This document shows positions 1-21,022 of a stretch of DNA of 21,022 nt, piece by piece. The notes under the pieces were generated by a model that had not been told where the DNA came from, searched no databases, and saw only the letters and a list, made by a program, of their open reading frames with translations. The DNA is taken from positions 1 through 21,022 of the IMG/VR virus record IMGVR_UViG_3300036846_000232. One strand, written 5' to 3'. This DNA is from a virus. A program made the position numbers and the translations under genes. Within the stretch, counting starts at the first letter, position 1; every line of letters starts with the position of its first letter.

Positions 1-1
1 A

Positions 2-1279
2 CCCGCCTACGCGCGGGTTTTCTTTTGCTCGCTGGCAGGCCAGCTGGGTATCACCCGCCTGACTGACTCTGTTTCTGGCATAACGCTTGGTCCTGAACAG
101 ATTGCCGAGCCGCTGGCGCTGTTTGGCGATGAGGATGGAATGGAAGCCAGACCATCCCGTAGCTATCAGGTGACAAACGGGATCGCAGTGTTGCCGGTTT
201 CCGGCACGTTGGTCAGCAAAACCCGATCGCTGCAGCCTTATTCCGGCATGACCGGGTACAACGGCATTATTGCCCGTCTGCAGCAGGCCATCAGCGACCC
301 GGGTGTGGATGGCATCCTGCTGGATATGGATACGCCCGGCGGGATGGTGGCCGGGGCTTTTGACTGCGCCGATATCATCGCCCGTATGCGTGATATCAAG
401 CCCGTCTGGGCGCTGGCTAACGATATGAACTGCAGTGCCGGTCAGCTGATTGCGAGCGCGGCGTCGCGCCGAATGGTTACGCAGACCGCCAGAACGGGCT
501 CCATCGGCGTCATGATGGCGCACAGCAACTATGGCGCAGCGCTGAAAACGAACGGCGTTGAGGTCACGCTGATTTACAGCGGCGATCACAAAATCGCCGG
601 CAACCCTTACGAAAAGCTACCGAATGATGTTCGCGCTGATTTTCAGTCGCGTATCGATGCCACTCGCCAGATGTTTGCCGCAAAGGTTTCTGCCTATACC
701 GGCATGTCCGTGCAGGACGTACTCGATACCGAAGCGGCAGTATTCTCCGGGCAGGAGTCAGTGGATAACGGCCTGGCAGATGAACTTGTTAACAATACCG
801 ATGCGCTCGGTGTGATGCGCGAAGCGCTCGACCGTCGCAAGAAAATAACTACTGGAGGAAGTATGCCATCACCATCTGCATCCGCAGTGACCACAAACAC
901 CGTTGCTCAGCCTACCGCGCAGACTGTACCGGCTATCACCACCGAACCGGCATCCATTGAAGCGGCAACCGCTACTGTAGCCGCTCCTGCAGATGTCAAT
1001 GCGCAGGTCTCGGCAGCCGTCGCCGCAGAGAATGGTCGTATCATGGGCATCCTGAATTGCGACGAGGCGAAAGGGCGCGATTCACAGGCGCGTGTGCTCG
1101 CTGAAACACCAGGTATGACGGTTGAGAGCGCACAACGCATTCTGGCCGCCGCACCGCAAAGCGCCCAGGCGCGCACAGATACCGCACTGGATCGCCTGAT
1201 GGAAACGTCACCGGGCGCAGTTTCAGCAGGGAATGCCTTTGCTGAAGACGGTAACGATTTGTTAAACACCCCCGTTTAA
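2..1279 (+). CDS. C: Head maturation protease, lambda gpC-like (S49/SppA family), 5' truncated by window edge
   Basis: The reading frame is open from base 2, so the gene starts before the window; about 425 residues are visible against 439 in lambda gpC, so roughly 20 N-terminal residues are missing. The first visible residues (PAYARVFFC) match lambda gpC, which argues that the in-frame ATG at 140 is not the start. The family is an SppA-like Ser-Lys peptidase that works inside the procapsid, processing the portal and scaffold before DNA packaging. Counting from the Met at 140, the predicted nucleophile is Ser99 in NCSAG and the base is Lys151 in GDHK. Their 52-residue spacing equals that of lambda Ser166/Lys218. 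The last third, after about base 863, is the scaffold region shared with Nu3. The C-terminus (NDLLNTPV) is the same as in lambda. Confidence 0.96.
   Translation, partial: PAYARVFFCSLAGQLGITRLTDSVSGITLGPEQIAEPLALFGDEDGMEARPSRSYQVTNGIAVLPVSGTLVSKTRSLQPYSGMTGYNGIIARLQQAISDPGVDGILLDMDTPGGMVAGAFDCADIIARMRDIKPVWALANDMNCSAGQLIASAASRRMVTQTARTGSIGVMMAHSNYGAALKTNGVEVTLIYSGDHKIAGNPYEKLPNDVRADFQSRIDATRQMFAAKVSAYTGMSVQDVLDTEAAVFSGQESVDNGLADELVNNTDALGVMREALDRRKKITTGGSMPSPSASAVTTNTVAQPTAQTVPAITTEPASIEAATATVAAPADVNAQVSAAVAAENGRIMGILNCDEAKGRDSQARVLAETPGMTVESAQRILAAAPQSAQARTDTALDRLMETSPGAVSAGNAFAEDGNDLLNTPV
863..1279 (+). CDS. Nu3: Capsid scaffolding protein, lambda Nu3-like, internal in-frame start within C
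   Basis: Lambda makes its scaffold Nu3 by re-initiating translation in frame within C, so Nu3 equals the C-terminal part of gpC. The same arrangement is visible here: an ATG at 863 in the C frame is preceded by a strong ribosome binding site, TGGAGGAAGT (853-862). It would give a 138-residue protein ending with C at 1279. The segment opens with a low-complexity Ala/Thr/Pro stretch and then becomes helical (AAVAAENGRIMGIL). Nu3 guides gpE assembly into the procapsid shell and is degraded before packaging. The strong internal Shine-Dalgarno, the family precedent and the position at the protease-scaffold junction support this start. Other internal starts cannot be excluded, since the lambda Nu3 start itself has been revised. 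Confidence 0.8.
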   Translation: MPSPSASAVTTNTVAQPTAQTVPAITTEPASIEAATATVAAPADVNAQVSAAVAAENGRIMGILNCDEAKGRDSQARVLAETPGMTVESAQRILAAAPQSAQARTDTALDRLMETSPGAVSAGNAFAEDGNDLLNTPV

Positions 1280-1288
1280 GAGGCTCAC

Positions 1289-1621
1289 ATGGCAATTACC
1301 GAAGTTTTCACTCATAACCAGCCGCTCGGTAACAGCGACCCAGCACATACCGCGTATGCACCAGGCGAACTGACGGCATCCACGGCGGCAATGACGCCGC
1401 TCATGCTTGATGTTACGTCTGGCAAGCTGACGGTATGGGACGGTGAGAATGCTGGCGCAGCGACCGGCATTCTGGCTGTAACCGCAGACCAGGACAGCGC
1501 GGAGCTGGCATTTTATAAATCTGGCTCATTCCGCATTGAGGATGTGCTCTGGCCATCAGCCGTCACCGACGAAAATATCAAGCGTAATGCGTTCGCCGGC
1601 ACTGCTATCAGCATCGTTTAA
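1289..1621 (+). CDS. D: Head decoration protein, lambda gpD-like
   Basis: The product has 110 residues, the same length as lambda gpD, and matches it throughout: an N-terminal [15 protein letters not shown] segment, a central MTPLMLD strand and the C-terminus FAGTAISIV. gpD trimers bind the three-fold sites of the expanded capsid from outside and stabilise the packaged genome. The N-terminal arm is unstructured until it joins the gpE lattice. The start is set by GAGG at 1280-1283 just upstream of the ATG. The gene follows C by 9 bases and precedes the major capsid gene, as in lambda. Decoration protein is needed in hundreds of copies per particle, which fits a compact gene with a good ribosome binding site next to E. 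Confidence 0.97.
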
Positions 1622-1651
1622 CCCGCCTTTTTACCACCATCATTATTAATG

Positions 1652-1676
1652 AAAGCCGCGTATGCGGCTTTTTTTA
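1652..1676 (+). terminator. Hairpin plus T-run between D and E
   Basis: An 8-bp perfect stem, AAAGCCGC (1652-1659) with GCGGCTTT (1664-1671), closes a GTAT loop and runs into seven consecutive T (1669-1675). It looks like an intrinsic terminator but lies inside the late operon. A near-identical hairpin sits in the same D-E gap of lambda (recalled, not computed). It is likely read through or trimmed back to during late expression, and may protect or tune the abundant D message. Confidence 0.7.
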
Positions 1677-1688
1677 TGGGAAAAATCT

Positions 1689-2714
1689 ATGTCAGTTTAC
1701 ACAACAGCCCAGCTGCTGGCGGTCAATGAGAAGAAATTCAAATTCGATCCGCTCTTCCTTCGTATCTTCTTCCGCGAAAGCTATCCCTTCAAAACCGAGA
1801 AGGTTTACCTGTCGCAAATTCCCGGCATGGTCAACATGGCGCTGTATGTTTCGCCGATTGTCTCCGGCAAGGTGATCCGCTCCCGTGGCGGCAGCACCTC
1901 TGAATTTACGCCTGGCTATGTCAAGCCGAAGCACGAAGTTAACCCGCAGATGACGCTTCGCCGCCTGCCTGATGAAGATCCACAAAATCTGGCAGACCCT
2001 GATTATCGCCGCCGCCGCATCATCCTTCAGAACATGAAAGATGAAGAGCTGGCGATTGCACAGGTCGAAGAGAAGCAAGCAATTGAAGCGGTGCTCTATG
2101 GGAAATACACCATGAGCGGAGAAGCCTTTGAGCCAGTAGAAGTCGATATGGGTCGCAGCGCCGGCAATAACATCATTCAGGCTGGTGCGGCAGCATGGTC
2201 CGCCCGTGACAAAAAAACCTATGATCCGACCGATGATATTGAAGCCTATGCGCTTAACGCCAGCGGCACAGTCAACATTATCGTGTTCGATCCGAAGGGC
2301 TGGGCCTTGTTCCGCTCTTTCGACGCGGTGAAAGAGAAGCTGGATACCCGTCGTGGCTCTAACTCTGAGCTGGAAACCGCCCTGAAAGACCTGGGTGAAG
2401 CCGTTTCTTATAAGGGCATGTACGGCGATGTGGCCATTGTCGTTTACGCAGGCCAGCTTGTTGAAAATGACGTCAAAAAGAACGCTCTGCCAGACCTGAC
2501 AATGGTGCTGGGTAATACCCTGGCCCGTGGCCTGCGTACCTATGGCTGCATTATGGATGCAGATGCCCAGCGTGAAGGTATTAATGCCTCAACGCGCTAC
2601 CCGAAAAACTGGGTACAGACGGGCGACCCGGCGCGCGAGTTCACCATGATTCAGTCAGCCCCGCTGATGCTGCTGCCAGACCCGGACGCGTTCGTGTCCG
2701 TCAAACTGGCATAA
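1689..2714 (+). CDS. E: Major capsid protein, lambda gpE-like
   Basis: The product is the HK97-fold major head protein that forms the T=7 shell. Starting at ATG 1689 it has 341 residues, exactly the lambda gpE length, and its first residues (MSVYTTAQLL) align with lambda. An in-frame ATG at 1662 is rejected because it lies inside the D-E hairpin and would add residues absent from the family. Lambda-like segments run along the whole protein, including VYLSQIPG, IVSGKVIRSRGGSTSEFTPG, VNPQMTLRRLPDEDPQNLAD, a YDPTDDIEAYALNASG stretch and the C-terminal MIQSAPLMLL. The ribosome binding site is modest (GGGAAAA). The flanking genes encode its partners: scaffold and decoration protein upstream, head-completion proteins downstream. 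Confidence 0.98.
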   Translation: MSVYTTAQLLAVNEKKFKFDPLFLRIFFRESYPFKTEKVYLSQIPGMVNMALYVSPIVSGKVIRSRGGSTSEFTPGYVKPKHEVNPQMTLRRLPDEDPQNLADPDYRRRRIILQNMKDEELAIAQVEEKQAIEAVLYGKYTMSGEAFEPVEVDMGRSAGNNIIQAGAAAWSARDKKTYDPTDDIEAYALNASGTVNIIVFDPKGWALFRSFDAVKEKLDTRRGSNSELETALKDLGEAVSYKGMYGDVAIVVYAGQLVENDVKKNALPDLTMVLGNTLARGLRTYGCIMDADAQREGINASTRYPKNWVQTGDPAREFTMIQSAPLMLLPDPDAFVSVKLA

Positions 2715-2760
2715 CCACAATCCGGTGGCCCATTCGGGCCACATTTCTGGAGTATTCCCC

Positions 2761-3213
2761 ATGACAGAAAAAGAAACACTGATTGCTCGCCTGAATGAAC
2801 TGGGCGCACAGCTTAACCGCGAAGTTAACACCAGTGGCACTATCCAGGAGTTGAAGATGCGCATTGCCGAGCTCGAGGAAGAGCTGGGAGAGGCGGTCGT
2901 AACGGTTGATGGTGCTGGCGGCGATCTGAATCATTCTGGTATCACCGATACCACCGATACCACCGATACCATCATCACTGATGGTGTTGATCACAGCATC
3001 TCCCAAATCTTACAGAATGCCGCAGCGGCTACCACCACAACCGTCACAACCGGTGACCGGGTATCAGTAGAAACGCTGGCCACGCTGCACATTGACGCGC
3101 TGCATGCCACACGTAACGAGTCGGTATCCATTGTGGAGCCTGGTGTGATTGTCCGCGTTTCTGGCGAAGATGCTGCCCTGCTGATTGCTCATGGACTGGC
3201 TCGCGAAGTCTGA
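2761..3213 (+). CDS. FI: DNA packaging/head protein, lambda gpFI-like
   Basis: In lambda, gpFI helps terminase dock on the procapsid and stimulates packaging. The N-terminus (MTEKETLIARLNELGAQLNR) and the last 40 residues (LHIDALHATRNE through GLAREV) resemble lambda gpFI, while the middle differs. The start chosen is ATG 2761, with GGAG ending about 9 bases upstream; an in-frame ATG at 2725 has no clear ribosome binding site and lies right after E. The protein is 150 residues against 132 in lambda. The extra length is in a Thr/Asp-rich linker (residues about 58-75) encoded partly by three tandem copies of a 9-bp unit. Rapid divergence in this linker is typical of the family. Confidence 0.88.
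   Translation: MTEKETLIARLNELGAQLNREVNTSGTIQELKMRIAELEEELGEAVVTVDGAGGDLNHSGITDTTDTTDTIITDGVDHSISQILQNAAAATTTTVTTGDRVSVETLATLHIDALHATRNESVSIVEPGVIVRVSGEDAALLIAHGLAREV
2944..2970 (+). repeat. Three tandem 9-bp repeats in FI
   Basis: ACCGATACC occurs three times without interruption and encodes TDT-TDT-TDT at residues 62-70 of the FI-like protein. The 9-bp unit keeps the frame, so copy number could vary by slippage without disrupting the gene. Confidence 0.95.
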
Positions 3214-3223
3214 CGGGGGCGGT

Positions 3224-3577
3224 ATGACTGATTTCGATAACATCTTTGATGAGGCCATGTCGCGCGCTGATACCACTATCCGTGGCGTGATGGGGGCAGC
3301 GGCAACGGTATCGTCAGGAACCCTGTCAGGCGTCACGCTCAACGGTGTGTTCGATGATCCAGAGAATATAGGTTACGCCGACGCGGGGATTCGCATTGAC
3401 GGGACCAAACCATCGCTGTTTGTTAAAACCTCCGATGTCAGTGGGCTGGAACGCTTGGACACCCTGAAGATTCACGGTCGGGATTTTTGGGTTGATCGCG
3501 TTGGTCCGGATGATTGTGGCTCCTGTTATGTATGGCTTGGTACTGGCTCACCGCCAAACGGCGCGCGGCGTCGTTAA
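3224..3577 (+). CDS. FII: Head-tail connector, lambda gpFII-like
   Basis: Lambda gpFII is the last head-completion protein; it plugs the portal vertex and forms the surface to which the tail attaches. From ATG 3224 the product has 117 residues, the same as lambda gpFII. Conserved segments include DFDNIFD at the N-terminus, GVFDDPENIGYAD, SPSLFVKT-like strand PSLFVKTSDV, FWVDRVGPDDCGSC and the terminal Arg-rich ARRR. An in-frame ATG at 3185 is rejected because it lies inside FI; GGGGGCGGT (3215-3223) abuts the preferred start. The gene starts 10 bases after FI and ends 9 bases before Z, so translation is probably coupled. Confidence 0.94.
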   Translation: MTDFDNIFDEAMSRADTTIRGVMGAAATVSSGTLSGVTLNGVFDDPENIGYADAGIRIDGTKPSLFVKTSDVSGLERLDTLKIHGRDFWVDRVGPDDCGSCYVWLGTGSPPNGARRR

Positions 3578-3586
3578 GGAGTATCC

Positions 3587-4171
3587 ATGTCGATAAAAGG
3601 TCTTGAGCAGGCGATTGCTAACCTGGACAGCCTGGACAGAAATATGGTTCCCAATGCCAGCGCCTGGGCTGTTAACCGGGTTGCGGCTAATGGCGTCTCG
3701 GTTGCCGTCCGAAAGGTGGCGAAAGAAACGGTAGCCGGCGACAACCACGTCTCAGGGATACCGGTAAAACTGGTCCGGCAAAGGGTCAGAATCAACAAAG
3801 CCTCGCCATCAGGGCATTCAGCGGCACGAATCAAGGTTAACCGGGGCAATCTCCCTGCTATCAAGCTGGGTGCCGCGCAGGTCAGGGCGACCAACCGAAA
3901 AGGCCCGCTCGTTCGCAAAAGCAGCGTGTTGAGGATTGGTCGTTACGTTTTCCGTGATGCCTTTATCCAGCAACTGGCGAACGGTCGCTGGCATGTCATG
4001 AAGCGCATTGCCGGCAAAAGCCGTTACCCCATTGATGTGGTCAAAATCCCCCTGGCCACGCCACTCACCACGGCATTTGAAGCAGAAAAGAAACGCATGC
4101 TTGAAGAGGAGATGCCAAAACAACTTGGCTATGCCCTTAAGCAGCAACTGAGGCTGCATCTGAAACGATGA
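3587..4171 (+). CDS. Z: Minor tail protein, lambda gpZ-like
   Basis: The product has 194 residues (192 in lambda) and is basic, with many Arg and Lys. The N-terminus (MSIKGLEQAIANL) and the stretch from AFIQQLANGRWHVM through YPIDVVKIP to LGYALKQQL match lambda gpZ. The middle (about residues 40-110) is more divergent. In lambda, gpZ acts late in tail completion, and tails lacking it join heads but give non-infectious particles. AAGGAG at 3578-3583 supports the start. The stop codon overlaps the start of U in the sequence ATGA, a sign of translational coupling. Confidence 0.93.
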   Translation: MSIKGLEQAIANLDSLDRNMVPNASAWAVNRVAANGVSVAVRKVAKETVAGDNHVSGIPVKLVRQRVRINKASPSGHSAARIKVNRGNLPAIKLGAAQVRATNRKGPLVRKSSVLRIGRYVFRDAFIQQLANGRWHVMKRIAGKSRYPIDVVKIPLATPLTTAFEAEKKRMLEEEMPKQLGYALKQQLRLHLKR

Positions 4172-4566
4172 AACACACTCTGATTCGCCAGAAAATCATT
4201 GATGCGCTCGAGGAGAGCATCGGCAAAGACGTCATGTTTTTGGACGGTCGCCCTGCCGTTATTGAGGAGGAGGATTTTCCTGCCGTGGCGGTCTTTTTGA
4301 CCGACGCGGAGTATACCGGCGAAGAGCTGGATGCAGATACGTGGGCAGCGACGTTACATATTGAGCTTTTCCTGCCATCGCAGGTACCGGATTCCGAGCT
4401 GGATGAGTGGATGGAAAGCAAAATTTATCCGGCCCTTACTGATATTCCGGGGCTGGATTCACTGATTACTCTCATGGTTCCACAGGGCTTTGATTACCAG
4501 CGTGATGATGGTATGGGCCTGTGGAGCTCCGCTGATATGAAATATTCAATAACTTACGAAATGTGA
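4168..4566 (+). CDS. U: Tail terminator protein, lambda gpU-like
   Basis: gpU forms a hexameric ring that caps the tail tube once it reaches the length set by the tape measure and then offers the joining surface to the head. The product has 132 residues against 131 in lambda. MKHT at the start, [21 protein letters not shown], a [16 protein letters not shown] stretch and the C-terminal YEM are lambda-like. The gene overlaps Z by 4 bases (ATGA) and is followed after 7 bases by V. Confidence 0.95.
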
Positions 4567-4573
4567 GGGATAT

Positions 4574-5317
4574 ATGGCTACACCAAATCCACTGGCACCC
4601 GTAAAAGGTGCCGGTACCACACTCTGGCTGTATGCCGGTGCAGGCGACGGATTTTCAAATCCGCTTTCGGACGTTGACTGGAGCCGCCTGGCAAAAATCA
4701 AAGAGCTCACACCCGGAGAAATGACCGCTGAATCATACGATGACACTTATCTCGATGACGAAGATGCGGACTGGAACGCGACCGCTCAGGGCGCAAAATC
4801 TGCCGGCGATACTTCTTTTACCCTTGCCTGGAAACCGGGAGAAGAAGGGCAGAAAGACCTTGTCGCATGGTTTGGTGATGGCTCAGTGCGCTATTACAAA
4901 ATCAAATACCCGAACGGCACGGTCGACGTTTTCCGTGGATGGTGCAGCAGCCTGGGCAAAGCCATTCCCGCCAAAGAGGTCATTACCCGTACAGCGAAAA
5001 TCACCAATACCGGCAAGCCGCAGCTGGCGGAAGAGAGCGGCACTCCGAATATCGCCGTTACCGGCGTTGCGCTCGACAAGGCCACGGCCAGCGTCGTGGT
5101 CGGGGAAACTACCGCGCTCAGTGTGGCGATCACTCCAGCCAGCGCCTCAGATACTTCGTTCCGTGTGGCCACCTCTGATGGGGCAATCGCGACTGTTACC
5201 GTCAGCGGCAACACGATCACCGTCACGGGCGTGGCGGAAGGCATTACAGACATTATTGTGATGACCAGCGACGGCAATTTTGTGGCTGTGTGCAAAGTCA
5301 CCGTTACTGCGGATTAA
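4574..5317 (+). CDS. V: Major tail tube protein, lambda gpV-like, with C-terminal Ig-like domain
   Basis: gpV polymerises into the stacked hexamers of the tail tube. The product has 247 residues (246 in lambda). Residues about 1-150 are the tube domain and carry lambda-like segments such as [37 protein letters not shown] and [10 protein letters not shown]. Residues about 160-246 form a bacterial Ig-like (BIG_2 type) domain, with [17 protein letters not shown] and ITVTGVAEG. In lambda this domain projects from the tail surface, is dispensable for assembly and may aid cell-surface adhesion. The Ig-like half is more divergent than the tube half. GAGGGATAT directly precedes the ATG. Confidence 0.97.
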
Positions 5318-5326
5318 GGGGATCGC

Positions 5327-5761
5327 ATGTTTCTGAAGAAAGAGGATTTCACCTATAACGGCGAGTCCGTAATGATTACCGAGCTGTCGGCTCTGCAGCG
5401 TATTGAATTTCTCACTTTCCTGGCACAGGAAGAGAAAGCGGTCGACGCTGACAGCAGCGGTATCAGCGATCAAGAAATGACGGCTCGCCTGGTTGGGTCG
5501 AACATTCGCTGCGGTGCGCGCGTGGTCGCGCTGTCTTTATGGCATAACGATCCGACTGGCGACGATGTGGATGCGCTGTTCCAGCAGGTGCTCAGCAGCT
5601 GGCCGCCAGAAGCCATCGGTAAAGCCGAAATGAAGATTAAGCTGCTCTCCGGCATGCTCGTCCCGGTCGAAGATGATAACGCTAACGCGGCAGATTCAGA
5701 GGTTACTGCCGATGAAAACGCAGAATCCATTACGGCGGAAAAGCCCTTGCCAGCGAGCTGA
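5327..5761 (+). CDS. G: Tail assembly chaperone, lambda gpG-like
   Basis: This is the 0-frame product of the G/T pair, 144 residues (140 in lambda). It opens with MFLKKEDF and has the ELSALQRIE motif, then ALSLWHNDP and a C-terminal acidic Ala/Glu-rich tail. gpG coats the tape measure protein and prevents aggregation. A minor fraction of ribosomes shift to the -1 frame near the end and make gpG-T, which recruits tail tube subunits. AAGGGGATCGC upstream of the ATG supports the start. The acidic tail is longer than the part needed before the shift site; the 0 frame continues only 6 codons past it. Confidence 0.94.
   Translation: MFLKKEDFTYNGESVMITELSALQRIEFLTFLAQEEKAVDADSSGISDQEMTARLVGSNIRCGARVVALSLWHNDPTGDDVDALFQQVLSSWPPEAIGKAEMKIKLLSGMLVPVEDDNANAADSEVTADENAESITAEKPLPAS
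5737..5743 (+). other. Candidate -1 frameshift site between G and T
   Basis: The heptamer GGAAAAG lies with 0-frame codons GAA AAG, five bases away from being purely repetitive. The T frame (-1) is closed by TGA at 5713-5715 and the G frame ends at 5759-5761, so the shift must happen between these. Lambda uses GGGAAAG at the matching position, 7 codons from the G stop. Here the third base is A instead of G: the Lys codon AAG can re-pair with AAA, while the Glu codon would re-pair on GGA with a middle mismatch. Confidence 0.75.
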
Positions 5762-6084
5762 AGTTTGTCCTGAATCTGGCGCGCGAGTTCGGGCGACCCG
5801 ACTGGCGCGCCATGCTGGCTGGAATGTCTTCCAGTGAGCTGGGCGACTGGCACCAGTTCTACCGGGAGCATTATTTTCAGGACGCGCAGCTCGATGCGCA
5901 CTTCTCCGGGCTGCTTTATTCCATCTCCACTCTCTTCTTCCGCGATCCGGAACTTACCCCCGCACATTTCAGCCTGCTTTCTCCTTCCGGAACTGCCATC
6001 AGCGATGAGGAACCGGACGATGACACGCTGATGACGGCAGCCGAGGGGATAACAGGAGGTATCCGTTATGGCCCAGCAGATTAG
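5743..6084 (+). CDS. T: T extension of the gpG-T fusion tail chaperone
   Basis: This segment is read in the -1 frame relative to G, entered after Lys139 at the GGAAAAG site, and gives a fusion protein of about 252 residues. It has no well-placed start of its own near its 5' end; the first ATG is at 5812, inside a region conserved with lambda. The sequence [19 protein letters not shown], then [11 protein letters not shown] and a late acidic EEPDDDTLM, matches lambda T. The T part binds gpV and brings tube subunits to the tape-measure-chaperone complex; neither G nor GT stays in the finished tail. T overlaps the start of the tape measure gene by 17 bases, and AGGAGG (6055-6060) for that gene lies inside T. 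Confidence 0.88.
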
Positions 6085-9000
6085 CGATCTGGTTATTAAG
6101 CTGGATGTTGATCGCGCCACCTTCAGCGAGCAGGTCGCCCGAATCAAAGGGCAACTGACCGGAATGGCTGATGAGTCTGATAAAGTCCAGACCCGAATGC
6201 AGCGCGCTTCCGAGCGGCAGGCCGCAGCGTTTAAAAGCGTGGGCGATGCCGGCGCAGCAGCGGCTAACGAAATAAAAGCCCGTCAGTCTGCTGCAGCAGA
6301 CGGTCTGACTAAAGACTGGCAGAACGTATCAAAATCCGTTGATGAAACTCACCGGCGCGTGACCGAACTGAACCAACGGATGCGCGAGAATGACGGGCAG
6401 GCGGCGGCGCTTGCTCAACGACAGGATGAACTTGCCGCGTCATTTTTCCGTCAGATTGACGGCGTTCGCCAGCTGAATGGTGAAACGCAGTCTCTTTCGA
6501 ACGTTCAGGCGCGCTTTCGTGCCGCGAGGGCGCAGGGCAACATCACCCAGCAGGATTATCTCGCGCTGATTTCCCGCACCACGGCCAGGCAAAAGGAGCT
6601 GCAGGTCGTTGAAGAGAAATCAGCTACAGCGCGTACTCGGTTCCTCACTCAGCTGAAGCAACAGGTTGCTGAGCAAAAGCTTTCCGGTACCGAGTTGCTG
6701 CGCATGAAGGCGGCGCAGGTCGGTGCCAGCGATGCGGCAGAGGTCTATATCCGCAAGCTTGAGACCGCCAAAGTCGCCACGCACGGGCTGGGCCTGCAAA
6801 GTGCGGCGGCACGTCGTGAAATCGGCATCCTGGTTGGAGAGGTCGCAAGGGGCAACTTTGGCGCGCTGCGCGGCTCCAGTATTACGCTGGCCAACCGTGC
6901 CGGCTGGATAGACCAACTGATGACATTGCGCGGATTGGGTATCGCGGGTGTCGTCGGCGGTATTACTGCAGCAGTGTATGTTCTGGGAAAAGCATGGTAT
7001 GAGGGGGGTAAAGAGTCTGAAGAGTTCAACAAACAGCTGATCCTTACCGGTAACTACGCCGGGAAAACATCTGGTCAGCTTCAGGCGCTGGCTCGCTCAC
7101 TGTCTGGAAATGGCATAACGCAGCATGCTGCTGCAGGTGTGCTTGCCCAGGTCGTCGGCAGCGGTGCGTTTAGTGGTAATGATGTCAGCATGGTGAGCAA
7201 TGTTGCCGCCAGGCTGCAGCAGGCTACCGGACAGGCCATTGATGAAACCATTAACCAGTTTAAGCGCCTGAAAGATGATCCGGTTAACGCGGTTGTAGCG
7301 CTTAACGATTCCATGCATTTTCTGACGGCCACACAGTATGAACAGATTTCCTCTGCTCAGGCACTGGGCGATTCGCAGAAAGCAGCGGAACTGGCCATGC
7401 AGGCATATTCTGAAGCGGTCATTCAGCGTGCCGGCGCGGTCCAGGAGAATCTCGGCTCGCTCGAAAAGTCTTGGAACTGGGTGAAAAATGCTGCGTCTGG
7501 CGCATGGGATGCGATGCTTGGTGTCGGGCGAAATCCTGACACCGCGATGAAGCGTCAGGATTCGTTTGCCGAGTGGCAGGCGGCGGAAAAAGAATACCGC
7601 GTCTTATCCAACAACCTCAAAGTTGATCCGGACTATGCCGGTAACAACGCCCTGCAGAAAGCTGATGCCGAACGACTGCGTAATGCGCGCGAGCAGGTAT
7701 CGCTCAAAAAGCAGGCTTACGATCTGGCTGATAAGCAATATGCCCAGGAAGGGCTGTCTGCCGCGCGAGAAAGCATGCGGACGGAACAGCAGAGTCAGGC
7801 TATCCGTACTCAGCAGCAGTTTAACCAGCTGGTAGAATCCGGGGCGACGACGGCTGAAAAGCGTGTTTTAGCAGAGAAAAAACTCAATCAGCTTATTGAG
7901 AAAAACCGGCAGGATGCGAAAGACGGTGTCGCTACGCTGTGGTCTGACAAAGATATCGCCGCTGCGCGAGCGGGTATCGAGAAGCAGTTTAAGGATACCA
8001 AAACGCCGAAGGGTAAAAGCTACTCAACGCCTGCAGGGGACAAGGCAGAAGAGAAGGCGCAGGCCGAACTTTTGACACTTCAGGCCCAGCTTCAGACGCT
8101 TCAGCAACATACCAGCGTTAACGATGTCATCAGCAAGCAGCGACAGGACCTGTGGCAAGCCGAAAACCAGTTTGCGGTTCTGCAGGAGGCTTCCGGCAAA
8201 CGCCAGCTTTCTGCTCAGGAGAAATCGCTGCTGGCTCACAAAGATGAGACCCTGGAATACAAACGCCAGCTGGCTGACCTGGGCGATAAAGTGGCTCAGC
8301 AGCAAAAGCTTAATCAGCTTGCTGACCAGGCCGTTAAATTCGAACAGCAGCAGAAAGCAGCGCGGGCTGGTATTCAGGCGCAGTCGGAAGGTGTTTCCAG
8401 CCGGCAGGCCGGGAGGGAATCTACCCTGCAGCGCCTCAGCGAGACCTATTCCTACAACCCGGCAGCGCAGCAAAAGGTTCTGGCTGAGCAGCGGGCGACG
8501 TATGAGGCAGAAGACGCCCTGCGCGGGAACTGGCTGGCCGGCGCGAAGCAGGGCTGGGCGGAATATCAGGATTCAGCCACCAACGTATTCAGTTCAGTGC
8601 AGGAAATTTCGCAGGCGACGTTTACCGGGCTGGCAGGACAGCTCACCAGCCTGGTGACAACAGGTAAAGCCAGCTTCAGGGATTTCACGACCTCGATCCT
8701 CAAAATGATTGTCGACGTTATTAACCAGCTTCTGGTGGCTTACGCCATCCAGGGTGCAATGGGCTGGATTAGTGGCGGAGCCAGCGCCGGTTCGACGGGG
8801 CAATCCTTCGGCGTACCTTCTTTCCGACCCTCGGGTTATGACGTTGGCGGTTATACCGGGAACGGCGGCAAGTATGAGCCTGCCGGCGTTGTTCATCGCG
8901 GCGAATTTGTCTTCACTAAAGAGTCAACTAGCCGAATCGGTGTGAGCAATCTCTATCGCCTTATGCGCGGTTACGCTACTGGCGGTCTGGTCGGCGGGGG

Positions 9001-9208
9001 CAATCCAGCGGCAGCCGGCATGGGCGGCGTCAGTGTGTACGCCCCTGTATCAGTCACAACGGGTCAATCCAACGATCAGAAGCAGCAACAGGATGGTGGT
9101 GCGCTCGCCCAGGCATACCAGAAAGTGGTCGACCGCTCAGTGAGGGAGGGGATCGCCCGTGAAATACGTCCTGGCGGGATTATCTGGAATGCTAATAAAC
9201 AGAGGTAA
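6068..9208 (+). CDS. H: Tape measure protein, lambda gpH-like, enlarged
   Basis: The tape measure protein sets tail length, fills the tube and is ejected ahead of the DNA. The start has a consensus AGGAGG 7 bases upstream. The product has 1046 residues against 853 in lambda. The first ~245 residues are Gln/Ala/Arg-rich and predicted coiled coil, longer than in lambda. A hydrophobic membrane-like segment follows at about 288-310 ([19 protein letters not shown]). Residues about 325-460 resemble the lambda domain after its hydrophobic segment. A long Gln-rich coiled coil spans about 500-800. A second hydrophobic stretch is at about 877-905. Residues about 935-973 ([20 protein letters not shown] and on) are highly lambda-like and lie near where lambda H is processed to H*. 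Confidence 0.96.
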
Positions 9209-18384: not shown

Positions 18385-19404
18385 CTATTTTTTGTTTTTT
18401 AGATGGCTTTCCAGTTTGTCGAGATTACGATTAACCTGTTCGGCAACCAGTTCTGATTCAAGCAATGCCTCTATTTTTTTTAGTAGCGTGGAGGGGATTT
18501 TTCGGTTGTCTAATTTGAGAGTGACAAAATTGCCGTTGTATTTGGCAACGACGCCATCGCCGTAGGATTTCTCGGTTTTTGGCAAACTGTCTTTATCTAT
18601 CAGAATAACGTCCTGTAGTGCTTGGATGATTCGTGCCGGCTCGAAATGCTCTCCTGCTTGCTTCATGCGAAGGAGCTGCTGCGCAGCGTTTATCATTGAC
18701 TCCTTATTTCCTTGGTAAACTTTGAATAAGTCATGTCCCGCTCGTGCCGAGAGTTCGCCTGGATGCTGGAAAATAGCGATAACATCGCGTGGTAAACCAG
18801 CCGTATTTATGCAGCGAGTAATGATATTACGGTCAATACCTTCAGCCTCAGCCAGAGCCTTTACGTTACCATCAAAATCTTTTAGGCGGCGCAGGTATCG
18901 CTTGCCGCGTTCGTATGCGCTGGTCGGTCGGTAGTCGTTACCGACTTGCGAAAGCCATTGCATTTGTTCGTCGTCTAACTCCCCGACCAACACGCGGTAG
19001 TCAGTGCGGGTGATGATAGCGGTCTTGCGTCGGCGGGAACCGTCCGCGACTTCAATAATGCCTGAAATTTTACGCGCGAATGCTGGGTTCTGTTGTCCCG
19101 ATGTGAGGAACGATGGGATCAGGTCAGCCAGTGCGGATTCGTTCAGCAATTCTTGATCGCGCTCGTTACCTAGCCACACCATCGTGGCCATCTCGACTTT
19201 ATCAGCAGGAATGGTTTCCAGCTTAAAGGCTACGTTACGGCCACAAACCGGTAGCGTAATACTGTTCCCGGATAACGAGCTTAATTTGCTCTGTAAGTCA
19301 CCAACCATAGGTGAAACAGACGGCGCTTTTTGCGGCGCATTATGAGTATTGCTCATGAACGTTTCGAGGTTGGGTGCATTTTTTAAAATAGAGCGATTTT
19401 TCAT
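18385..19404 (-). CDS. sopB: Plasmid partition protein SopB (ParB family)
   Basis: SopB binds centromere sites, spreads into a partition complex and stimulates the SopA ATPase. From ATG 19404 (2 bases after the sopA stop) the product has 339 residues against 323 in F. An in-frame ATG at 19488 lies inside sopA and is rejected. Residues 46-56 (NSITLPVCGRN), 80-110 (NERDQELLN, IPSFLTSGQQNPAF) and 120-127 (ADGSRRRK, the conserved ParB arginine patch/CTP-binding box) match F SopB. YRVLVGELDDEQM and NDYRPTSAYERG follow. The helix-turn-helix is at about 178-206 (AEAEGIDRNIITRCINTAGLP). HPGELSAR (214-221) keeps the region that sets F SopB DNA specificity. The C-terminal dimerisation tail is about 20 residues longer than in F. 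Confidence 0.95.
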   Translation of the reverse strand: MKNRSILKNAPNLETFMSNTHNAPQKAPSVSPMVGDLQSKLSSLSGNSITLPVCGRNVAFKLETIPADKVEMATMVWLGNERDQELLNESALADLIPSFLTSGQQNPAFARKISGIIEVADGSRRRKTAIITRTDYRVLVGELDDEQMQWLSQVGNDYRPTSAYERGKRYLRRLKDFDGNVKALAEAEGIDRNIITRCINTAGLPRDVIAIFQHPGELSARAGHDLFKVYQGNKESMINAAQQLLRMKQAGEHFEPARIIQALQDVILIDKDSLPKTEKSYGDGVVAKYNGNFVTLKLDNRKIPSTLLKKIEALLESELVAEQVNRNLDKLESHLKNKK

Positions 19405-19406
19405 AA

Positions 19407-20570
19407 TTAGTCCTCCCAACGAGGTTTGATCAGGTCTTCGAAAATTTCTTTGCAGACTGGCTCCCAGATTTCTACTGCATTTCGCCAAGCATTAAGCGTT
19501 GAGCGTTGATTTGCTGCTTGCTCAAATACGGTGCGCATCTTGATCTGGCCTTTACCTACTTCATCAGTGACCCGTACAACCTGTCGCAAGACCATAGCTC
19601 CCCAGGTATTTCGAATCTGCTCCTCCATCCATCTGGACTGATTGCCGTTAGTCAGGCTGTATTTTGTTAGGAGCAATCGGACTACAGGTTCGAAACCGCC
19701 CAAATCCACGGTTTCAAGCAGGTCGAGCAGCATTGTGAAAAACTGAAGAACCGATGCATAGTCGAACAGCTCTGCAGGGGTTGCTACAACGATGACATCA
19801 GCAGCACATACAACGTTAATAGTTCCCGTACCTAGGTTTGGAGCGCTGTCTACGACAATAATGTCGTAGTTATCCCAGATCGACTCGATAGCAGCACGAA
19901 GCATCAAGTGAGGGGGATGAGGCAACTTCCCCTCTGAATGGTGCTGCATCAGATCCGTTTCAATGCGATGAAGAGCAAGGCAGCTAGGAATTATGTCGAG
20001 GCCTGGCCAGCATGTCGGCTTAATTGCATATTCAGCGTTGTCGCGTTCGCCGAGGTAAAACGGAAGCAGAGTATCGTCTCTGTGAATGTGCAAATCAGGG
20101 ACGTAACCGTGGTACATCGATGCAGTTCCTTGAGGGTCATTCCCTTCAACAAGTAGAACCCTGTGCCCTTGCAAGGCTAGCCATTGCGCCTGGTGTACTG
20201 CGGATGAGGTTTTATAAACCCCTCCTTTATGCGACATAACAGAAAGTACAACCGGGTTTTTATCGTCGGGTCTTTGGTTTGGGTTACCAAACACGCTCCG
20301 CATATGGCTAATTTGGTCAATGGTGTAGCCAGCGCGACGTTCTACTCGCCCCCTCATCTCAAAATCAGGAGCCGGTAGGCGACCAGCTTTTTCCGCATCT
20401 CTGATAGCCTGCGGTGTTACGCCGATCAGGCCTGCAACTTCTGTAATGCCCCAGCGGCGAGTTATACGTCGTGCTTCTGGGCTGTCATCGCCGAACTGTG
20501 CGATGGCAATAGCGCGGGTCATTTCCTGACCGCGATTGATGCAGTCTTTCAGCAAATTTATTAATGACAT
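19407..20570 (-). CDS. sopA: Plasmid partition ATPase SopA (ParA type Ia)
   Basis: SopA is the DNA-binding Walker ATPase that drives plasmid segregation on the nucleoid and represses its own operon. ATG 20570 follows GAGAGGAAACAGG and gives 387 residues, close to F SopA at 388; an in-frame ATG at 20615 lies in the operator-promoter region and has no family support. The N-terminal helix-turn-helix (residues about 42-66, ITEVAGLIGVTPQAIRDAEK) binds the operator. The deviant Walker A motif is KGGVYKTS at 115-122, with signature Lys115 and Lys120; Asp145 (Walker A') and Asp241 in VVDSAPN (Walker B) follow. Lambda-block neighbours are convergent. Similarity to F SopA runs along nearly the whole length, including GNDPQGTASMYHG and IKPTCWPGLDIIPSCLALHR. 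Confidence 0.97.
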   Translation of the reverse strand: MSLINLLKDCINRGQEMTRAIAIAQFGDDSPEARRITRRWGITEVAGLIGVTPQAIRDAEKAGRLPAPDFEMRGRVERRAGYTIDQISHMRSVFGNPNQRPDDKNPVVLSVMSHKGGVYKTSSAVHQAQWLALQGHRVLLVEGNDPQGTASMYHGYVPDLHIHRDDTLLPFYLGERDNAEYAIKPTCWPGLDIIPSCLALHRIETDLMQHHSEGKLPHPPHLMLRAAIESIWDNYDIIVVDSAPNLGTGTINVVCAADVIVVATPAELFDYASVLQFFTMLLDLLETVDLGGFEPVVRLLLTKYSLTNGNQSRWMEEQIRNTWGAMVLRQVVRVTDEVGKGQIKMRTVFEQAANQRSTLNAWRNAVEIWEPVCKEIFEDLIKPRWED

Positions 20571-20610
20571 CCTGTTTCCTCTCAAACATGCCCTTACCTT
20601 TGTGTTTTTC

Positions 20611-20640
20611 ATCATACTTTACGTATTTTAAGCAAAGCAA
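20611..20640 (-). promoter_or_regulatory. sopAB promoter
   Basis: On the minus strand, TTGCTT (20640-20635) and TATGAT (20616-20611) are 18 bases apart. The -10 matches 5 of 6 consensus positions; the -35 is weak (TTG only). It lies 40 bases upstream of the sopA ATG, and the first SopA-type box overlaps the -35 region, as expected for an autorepressed promoter. Confidence 0.6.
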
Positions 20641-20675
20641 CATAAAAAAGGCAAAGTGACTCACAAAACGCAAAG
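20632..20675 (-). promoter_or_regulatory. SopA operator: three CTTTGC boxes at 19-bp spacing
   Basis: CTTTGC on the minus strand (GCAAAG on plus) occurs at 20632-20637, 20651-20656 and 20670-20675, exactly 19 bp apart. F SopA binds repeated CTTTGC-type boxes in its operator (established for F). The array starts at the sopAB -35 region and extends upstream. Together with the conserved SopA helix-turn-helix this supports autorepression. Confidence 0.8.
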
Positions 20676-20676
20676 T

Positions 20677-20757
20677 TTAGGTTTCAACCAATGATTTGAT
20701 GCGGCACAGAAGCTGTTTAGCCTCATCTAAGCGCATCGTTATTACTGACGTTGGCAT
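20677..20757 (-). CDS. Short candidate ORF upstream of the sop operator (26 aa)
   Basis: ATG 20757 opens a 26-codon frame ending in TAA at 20679-20677, next to the operator boxes. The predicted peptide (MPTSVITMRLDEAKQLLCR and six more residues) begins like a short beta strand followed by an amphipathic helix, reminiscent of the N-terminus of ribbon-helix-helix proteins, but it is too short to be a full one. There is no good ribosome binding site. It could be a leader peptide, a decayed gene start, or chance. The stretch is less AT-rich than what lies to its right. Confidence 0.25.
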   Translation of the reverse strand: MPTSVITMRLDEAKQLLCRIKSLVET

Positions 20758-21022
20758 ATTGAAAATCTAACTATATGATTTTAAATGGTAATAAATCATA
20801 CCAATTGCTATCAAAAGTTAAGAGAACATGCCGGATTTCTTACTGTTTATACACCGCGAAGTATCTCCTTCTCTTTTTCGACATCATCGAAACACAATAA
20901 AAGAACACAGCAAATCATAACTAGCCATCACTATCTAAGAATATCATAACAGAACATATATAAAGAATGCAATATAATCGAATCACAAAATCAGAACACT
21001 ATGCCACTAACATATCATATAT
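20758..21022. other. AT-rich stretch without a convincing gene
   Basis: Together with 20678-20757 this is the only region of more than 300 bases without a confident gene. It holds the inverted repeats at 20774-20803. ATCATA-type octamers, AAATCATA or ATATCATA, lie at 20793, 20912, 20941 and 21012. AGAACA lies at 20823, 20902, 20951 and 20993. A 30-codon plus-strand frame (20828-20920) is judged spurious. No rRNA, tRNA or telomere palindrome is visible. Confidence 0.6.
20774..20803. repeat. Overlapping inverted repeats in the AT-rich right end
   Basis: TATGATTT (20774-20781) is inverted as AAATCATA (20793-20800) with an 11-base spacer. TGGTA (20786-20790) is also inverted as TACCA (20799-20803), sharing part of the same sequence. 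They may be binding sites; AT-rich composition makes chance matches likelier. Confidence 0.45.

What the first reader, a model, noticed from the sequence alone, without database searches (positions are those of the whole stretch)
20632..20675. Three CTTTGC boxes at an exact 19-bp period in the sop operator
Seen: GCAAAG on the plus strand at 20632, 20651 and 20670. Known: F SopA recognises CTTTGC-like boxes in its own operator. The strict 19-bp period, just under two helical turns, suggests stepwise binding of SopA dimers from the -35 region outward. The boxes also sit between the promoter and a short ORF, so they may control both.
Basis: partly seen in the sequence, partly recalled or inferred. 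Interest (0 to 1): 0.55.

Follow-up and report, generated by a model that had tools for sequence, protein, structure and literature searches.

The report
SopA operator of an N15-like phage
Three evenly spaced copies of a six-letter DNA word are the published docking sites by which a plasmid-like phage turns down its own DNA-segregation genes; this copy follows the known layout of the F plasmid and phage N15, so it is an ordinary, well-preserved example.

Summary
In detail: GCAAAG starts at 20632, 20651 and 20670 on the + strand, an exact 19-bp period, and it is not chance. On the minus (operon) strand these are CTTTGC boxes #1, #2 and #3 upstream of sopA in an N15-like telomere phage. The layout is already published for F, pLVPK, N15 and phiKO2 (PMC8465637): three CTTTGC boxes 13 bp apart and an inverted box 28 bp further on, with a second inverted box (#2') between. 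All five positions are occupied here; #2' (GTAAAG) and #4 (ACAAAG) are each one letter off, as in N15. Of 37 distinct sopA leaders, 34 keep the 19/19 step while spacer letters change. The likely mechanism is the published one: three SopA dimers, each bridging a direct and an inverted half-site 34 bp apart and stepped by 19 bp, cover and repress the promoter. Small additions: 17 of 26 operators lack a perfect inverted pair, and half-sites extend to CTTTGC-NN-(A/T)3. Ordinary; new member of a known kind.

The parts
20670..20675 (-). Box #1, CTTTGC (direct half-site)
   Evidence: Exact match
20651..20656 (-). Box #2, CTTTGC (direct half-site), 13 bp after #1
   Evidence: Exact match
20632..20637 (-). 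Box #3, CTTTGC (direct half-site), 13 bp after #2; overlaps the presumed -35
   Evidence: Exact match
20635..20640 (-). Presumed -35 (TTGCTT), where the inverted partner of box #1 would fall
   Evidence: Assigned by position against F (paper; alignment). Only 3 of 6 letters match TTGACA, and the consensus scan did not list it
20617..20622 (-). Box #2', inverted half-site GTAAAG, 28 bp from #2
   Evidence: same variant as reported for N15 in PMC8465637
20611..20616 (-). Presumed -10 (TATGAT), 18 bp after the -35
   Evidence: Sequence and position against F
20598..20603 (-). Box #4, inverted half-site ACAAAG, 28 bp from #3
   Evidence: one letter off GCAAAG, as in N15 (L002)
20577..20580 (-). 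Likely ribosome-binding site AGGA
   Evidence: Read from the sequence
19407..20570 (-). sopA, ParA-type partition ATPase, 387 aa (start at 20570, not the 20615 of the mechanical ORF list)
   Evidence: same length as N15 gene 28
18385..19404 (-). sopB, ParB-type centromere-binding protein
   Evidence: SoPB_HTH; NF010252, above cut-off

Best explanation
The three boxes are the direct half-sites of the SopA autorepression operator of an N15-like linear plasmid prophage. Two of them pair with inverted half-sites whose centres lie 34 bp downstream (#2 with #2', #3 with #4); the partner position of #1 is taken up by the presumed -35. The exact 19-bp period is the step between three overlapping SopA dimers that together cover about 80 bp, including -35 and -10, and so repress sopAB. 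Shown here: the sequence layout, its conservation, and the identity of SopA and SopB. Inferred from published work on F: binding, three-dimer stoichiometry, oriented cooperative loading, help from SopB, and repression.
For: The layout 13/13/28 with five half-sites in the window equals the published layout of F, pLVPK, N15 and phiKO2. Of 37 distinct leaders among 47 loci, 34 keep the 19/19 step between direct boxes, while the distance from box #4 to the sopA start varies, mostly 21-29 bp. In 26 intact distinct operators, boxes #1 and #2 are invariant (pairwise identity 1.0), against 0.55 and 0.79 in the two 13-bp spacers. Among spacers of 16-45 bp, the inverted partner of #2 and of #3 fits best at 28 bp (mean mismatches 1.58 and 0.88; next best 3.15 and 2.69). 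In viral contigs 24 of 42 period-19 CTTTGC triples (17 distinct) stand just upstream of a SopA gene, against 0 of 58 at period 20.
Against: In F, replacement of all of motif #4 abolished binding, yet #4 and #2' here are each one letter off consensus; 17 of 26 operators lack any perfect inverted pair, so the rule that a perfect pair nucleates is not general. The -35 is weak and was not picked up by the scan. Centres 34 bp apart are 3.24 turns, so the two half-sites of a pair are not on exactly the same face. PY54 (L010) and L044/L047 deviate from the layout. There are no binding data for this sequence.
Confidence: 0.93

Rival explanations
1. One SopA monomer (or one dimer) binds each hexamer independently, and the 19-bp period reflects side-by-side packing along the DNA, as first proposed for F (four monomers on four boxes) and.
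For: The earlier monomer model for F is reported in PMC8465637; three direct boxes without obvious partners are what a first look shows.
Against: Inverted partners fit best at exactly 28 bp; SPR and gel filtration in F gave three dimers per operator, and no gel shift was seen without motif #4.
Confidence: 0.06
2. The boxes jointly control sopAB and a short upstream ORF.
For: Short ORFs exist near the boxes (minus 20757-20677, plus 20699-20770, plus 20588-20659, minus 20673-20485).
Against: Across 11 N15-type leaders these ORFs lose start codons, gain stops or shift frame. The 26-aa ORF has an in-frame stop in each of the other ten; the two plus-strand ORFs stay open with their ATG in 5 of 11 at most.
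Confidence: 0.02
3. Chance repeat without function.
For: The hexamer alone is no more frequent in the window than expected.
Against: 0 of 1000 local shuffles give a triple of this hexamer, and the same layout is kept in five operator types with changed spacers.
Confidence: 0.005

Closest known systems
sop operator of Escherichia phage N15 (NC_001901; L002)
   Same: All five half-sites identical, including GTAAAG and ACAAAG; same 13/13/28 spacing; SopA 98.45% identical
   Different: A few spacer letters differ; the leader alignment has a mean column identity of 80%
sopAB operator of plasmid F (NC_002483; L011)
   Same: Three CTTTGC boxes at 19-bp steps, inverted box 28 bp downstream, promoter inside the array (PMC8465637)
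   Different: In F #4 is a perfect GCAAAG and #2' a poorer match at 27 bp; SopA is about 74% identical
phiKO2-type operators (L007 and others)
   Same: Same layout and spacing
   Different: Both inverted boxes are ATAAAG
par operators of plasmids P1 and P7
   Same: Overlapping inverted motifs 26-29 bp apart proposed as ParA dimer sites (PMC8465637)
   Different: Different hexamers and different placing against -35/-10; taken from the paper, not examined here

Membership tests
F-type SopA (type Ia ParA) partition operator | Three direct CTTTGC boxes with 13-bp intervals | tested here: met
F-type SopA (type Ia ParA) partition operator | Inverted box 28 bp after box #3 (#4) | tested here: met
   ACAAAG, one mismatch, at exactly 28 bp, as in N15
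F-type SopA (type Ia ParA) partition operator | Second inverted box 27-28 bp after box #2 (#2') | tested here: met
   GTAAAG, one mismatch, at 28 bp, as in N15
F-type SopA (type Ia ParA) partition operator | Directly upstream of a sopA-sopB operon | tested here: met
F-type SopA (type Ia ParA) partition operator | -35 and -10 lie inside the box array | tested here: inconclusive
   Good -10 (TATGAT); -35 (TTGCTT) only by position against F; pair not listed
F-type SopA (type Ia ParA) partition operator | Bound by SopA as three dimers, stimulated by SopB, repressing the operon | not testable with these tools
   Published for F
Perfect-pair nucleation model proposed for F (PMC8465637) | At least one perfect inverted pair CTTTGC-28-GCAAAG | tested here: not met
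   Neither pair is perfect here or in the N15 and KO2 types; 9 of 26 operators have one. The paper itself counts N15 and phiKO2 in the operator family, so this bears on the nucleation model, not on membership
N15-like telomere phage | Telomere site and protelomerase gene next to sopA | tested here: inconclusive
   The window ends about 16 bp short of where N15 telRL begins; the protelomerase gene would lie beyond the window

The most novel reading that the evidence does not exclude
The operator is a ladder of equal 19-bp dimer steps in which the step and the 34-bp span, not a perfect nucleation pair, are what selection keeps. N15- and KO2-type operators would then work with no perfect pair. 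The true half-site is longer, CTTTGC-NN-(A/T)3, the A/T part facing the dyad, where a wing could read the minor groove. One lineage (two distinct operators, e.g. L032 and L036) even has a near-match (GCAAAT) at the partner position of box #1 that F lacks, giving six half-sites for three dimers.
Probability: 0.35. Interest if true: 0.3.

Novelty: new member of a known kind. Interest (0 to 1): 0.12.

Why it matters
It adds a close N15 relative to a published operator family. The compared set (47 loci, 30 distinct operators) shows the 19-bp step held fixed while spacer letters change, and shows that a perfect inverted pair is not universal, which narrows how SopA dimers may assemble. It does not open a new question of general interest.

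Tried and rejected
Independent-box packing, short-ORF control and chance were considered and are ranked as rivals. A consensus promoter scan did not list the presumed sop promoter (3 sites found, 2.1 expected), so the promoter call rests on position against F. The N15 SopB centromere consensus, taken from PMC7205306 (passages read), has no match in the window with up to 2 mismatches. One scan of genome contigs gave 3 loci. A search for work on further control of the N15 sop operon by protelomerase (recalled: Dorokhov and co-workers, 2003) found nothing held, so control from the telomere side is unassessed. The period-20 control is dominated by one repeated sequence family seen in many contigs, so its 58 matches are not independent cases; the same caution holds for the 24 SopA-linked matches (17 distinct).

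Rows dropped before counts: of 49 sequences with a SopA match, L001 (the window again) and L041 (truncated, no leader) were dropped, leaving 47. For the column statistics 4 of the 30 distinct operators were dropped: L030 (holds an N), L034 (one extra T, step 20), L044/L047 (rearranged) and L010 = PY54 (no good box #1). Operators of one lineage are not independent. Plasmid relatives were sampled, not surveyed: 4712 plasmid records match the sopA start region, and 11 plasmid records were read (L004-L006, L009, L011-L017).

Full report
What is there. The + strand reads GCAAAG at 20632, 20651 and 20670. The gene it precedes runs on the minus strand, so in operon sense these are three CTTTGC boxes, #1 (20675-20670), #2 (20656-20651) and #3 (20637-20632), each 13 bp from the next. 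The hexamer is not over-represented in the window, but an evenly spaced triple is: apart from a 9-bp repeat near 2943 it is the only such 6-mer in 21 kb, and 0 of 1000 dinucleotide shuffles of the local 462 bases give a CTTTGC/GCAAAG triple.

Surroundings. The downstream gene (minus, 20570-19407, 387 aa) is SopA: 98.45% identical to N15 SopA, Pfam AAA_31, NCBIfam NF010259 at 724.2 bits against a cut-off of 725. The next gene is SopB. The region from 19400 to the window end is 89.5% identical to phage N15. The window ends about 16 bp before the place where N15 telRL starts, so the contig most likely stops at a hairpin telomere or at its palindrome.

Hidden partners. The window also holds two inverted half-sites, GTAAAG (minus 20622-20617) and ACAAAG (minus 20603-20598), at exactly 28 bp from #2 and #3. 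Among spacers from 16 to 45 bp in 26 distinct operators, 28 bp is the best fit for both (mean mismatches 1.58 for #2 and 0.88 for #3; next best 3.15 and 2.69). #1 has no such partner: its slot reads GTTGCT, which overlaps the presumed -35, in 22 of 26.

Prior knowledge. PMC8465637 (abstract, whole Results section, first part of the Discussion, and found passages; [quoted passage not shown] three dimers bind; boxes #3-#4 nucleate; binding is cooperative and oriented; SopB improves binding about eight-fold; ADP does not change affinity. It names N15, phiKO2 and pLVPK as having the same spacing, N15 with GTAAAG at #2'. The finding is thus a further copy of a described operator, nearly identical to that of N15.

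Comparison made here. From 47 loci with a sopA leader there are 30 distinct 78-bp operators. Of 37 distinct 140-bp leaders, 34 keep the 19/19 step (33 with just these boxes, one with an extra box further up), one has 20/19, one is rearranged (a 57-bp gap, three steps of 19), and one (PY54) keeps a single exact box. Boxes #1 and #2 are invariant in 26 operators, the two 13-bp spacers average 0.55 and 0.79 pairwise identity, and the distance from #4 to the start codon varies. In viral contigs 24 of 42 exact period-19 triples stand just upstream of SopA, and 0 of 58 at period 20.

Small points that I did not see in the parts of PMC8465637 that I read; its supplementary alignment and figures were not available to me. 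First, 17 of 26 operators have no perfect inverted pair. Second, the bases at positions +3 to +5 after the hexamer are TTT in 26 of 26 operators at #1 and #2, A or T in 26 of 26 at #2' and #4, and A or T in at least 22 of 26 at #3; the region is A/T-rich, which weakens this. Third, two distinct operators of one lineage carry GCAAAT at the slot of #1'.

Nucleation around the -35 followed by outward loading resembles the published oriented assembly in F. The 19 bp, just under two turns (1.81 turns), is best read as the offset between overlapping dimers. The short-ORF idea fails: four short ORFs were checked in 11 N15-type leaders and none is kept throughout.

Verdict. Real, functional by homology, and ordinary: a new member of a known kind.

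Noticed in passing
window 20980-21022: The contig stops about 16 bp before the position where the N15 telRL palindrome begins, as expected for a linear plasmid prophage end or an assembly break at the palindrome.
   Followed up: partly
window 2943-2970: Three copies of a 9-bp repeat within ORF 2725-3213, giving a short D-T-T repeat in the protein.
   Followed up: no
L021/L023 and L037/L042; L084, L176, L195: Two contigs (92,470 and 25,496 bp) each carry two sopA copies in opposite orientation close together, and three more loci show two operators facing away from each other, like head-to-head dimers across a telomere.
   Followed up: no
L189, L192, L197: Period-19 CTTTGC triples with T-rich spacers but no SopA match in the locus, followed by an inverted repeat; possibly another operator or iteron.
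   Followed up: no
L044/L047: Rearranged sop operator: boxes at -121, -102 (CTTTTC) and -64 from the start codon keep multiples of 19 bp, with an inverted GAAAAG 34 bp from the first.
   Followed up: partly
L048 (Limoniibacter endophyticus record): A contig labelled as this organism carries a KO2-type sop operator identical to Klebsiella plasmid copies; possibly contamination or mislabelling.
   Followed up: no
window 1-9045: The left part resembles phage phi80 head and tail genes (83.5% identity), while the right end is N15-like: a mosaic genome.
   Followed up: no
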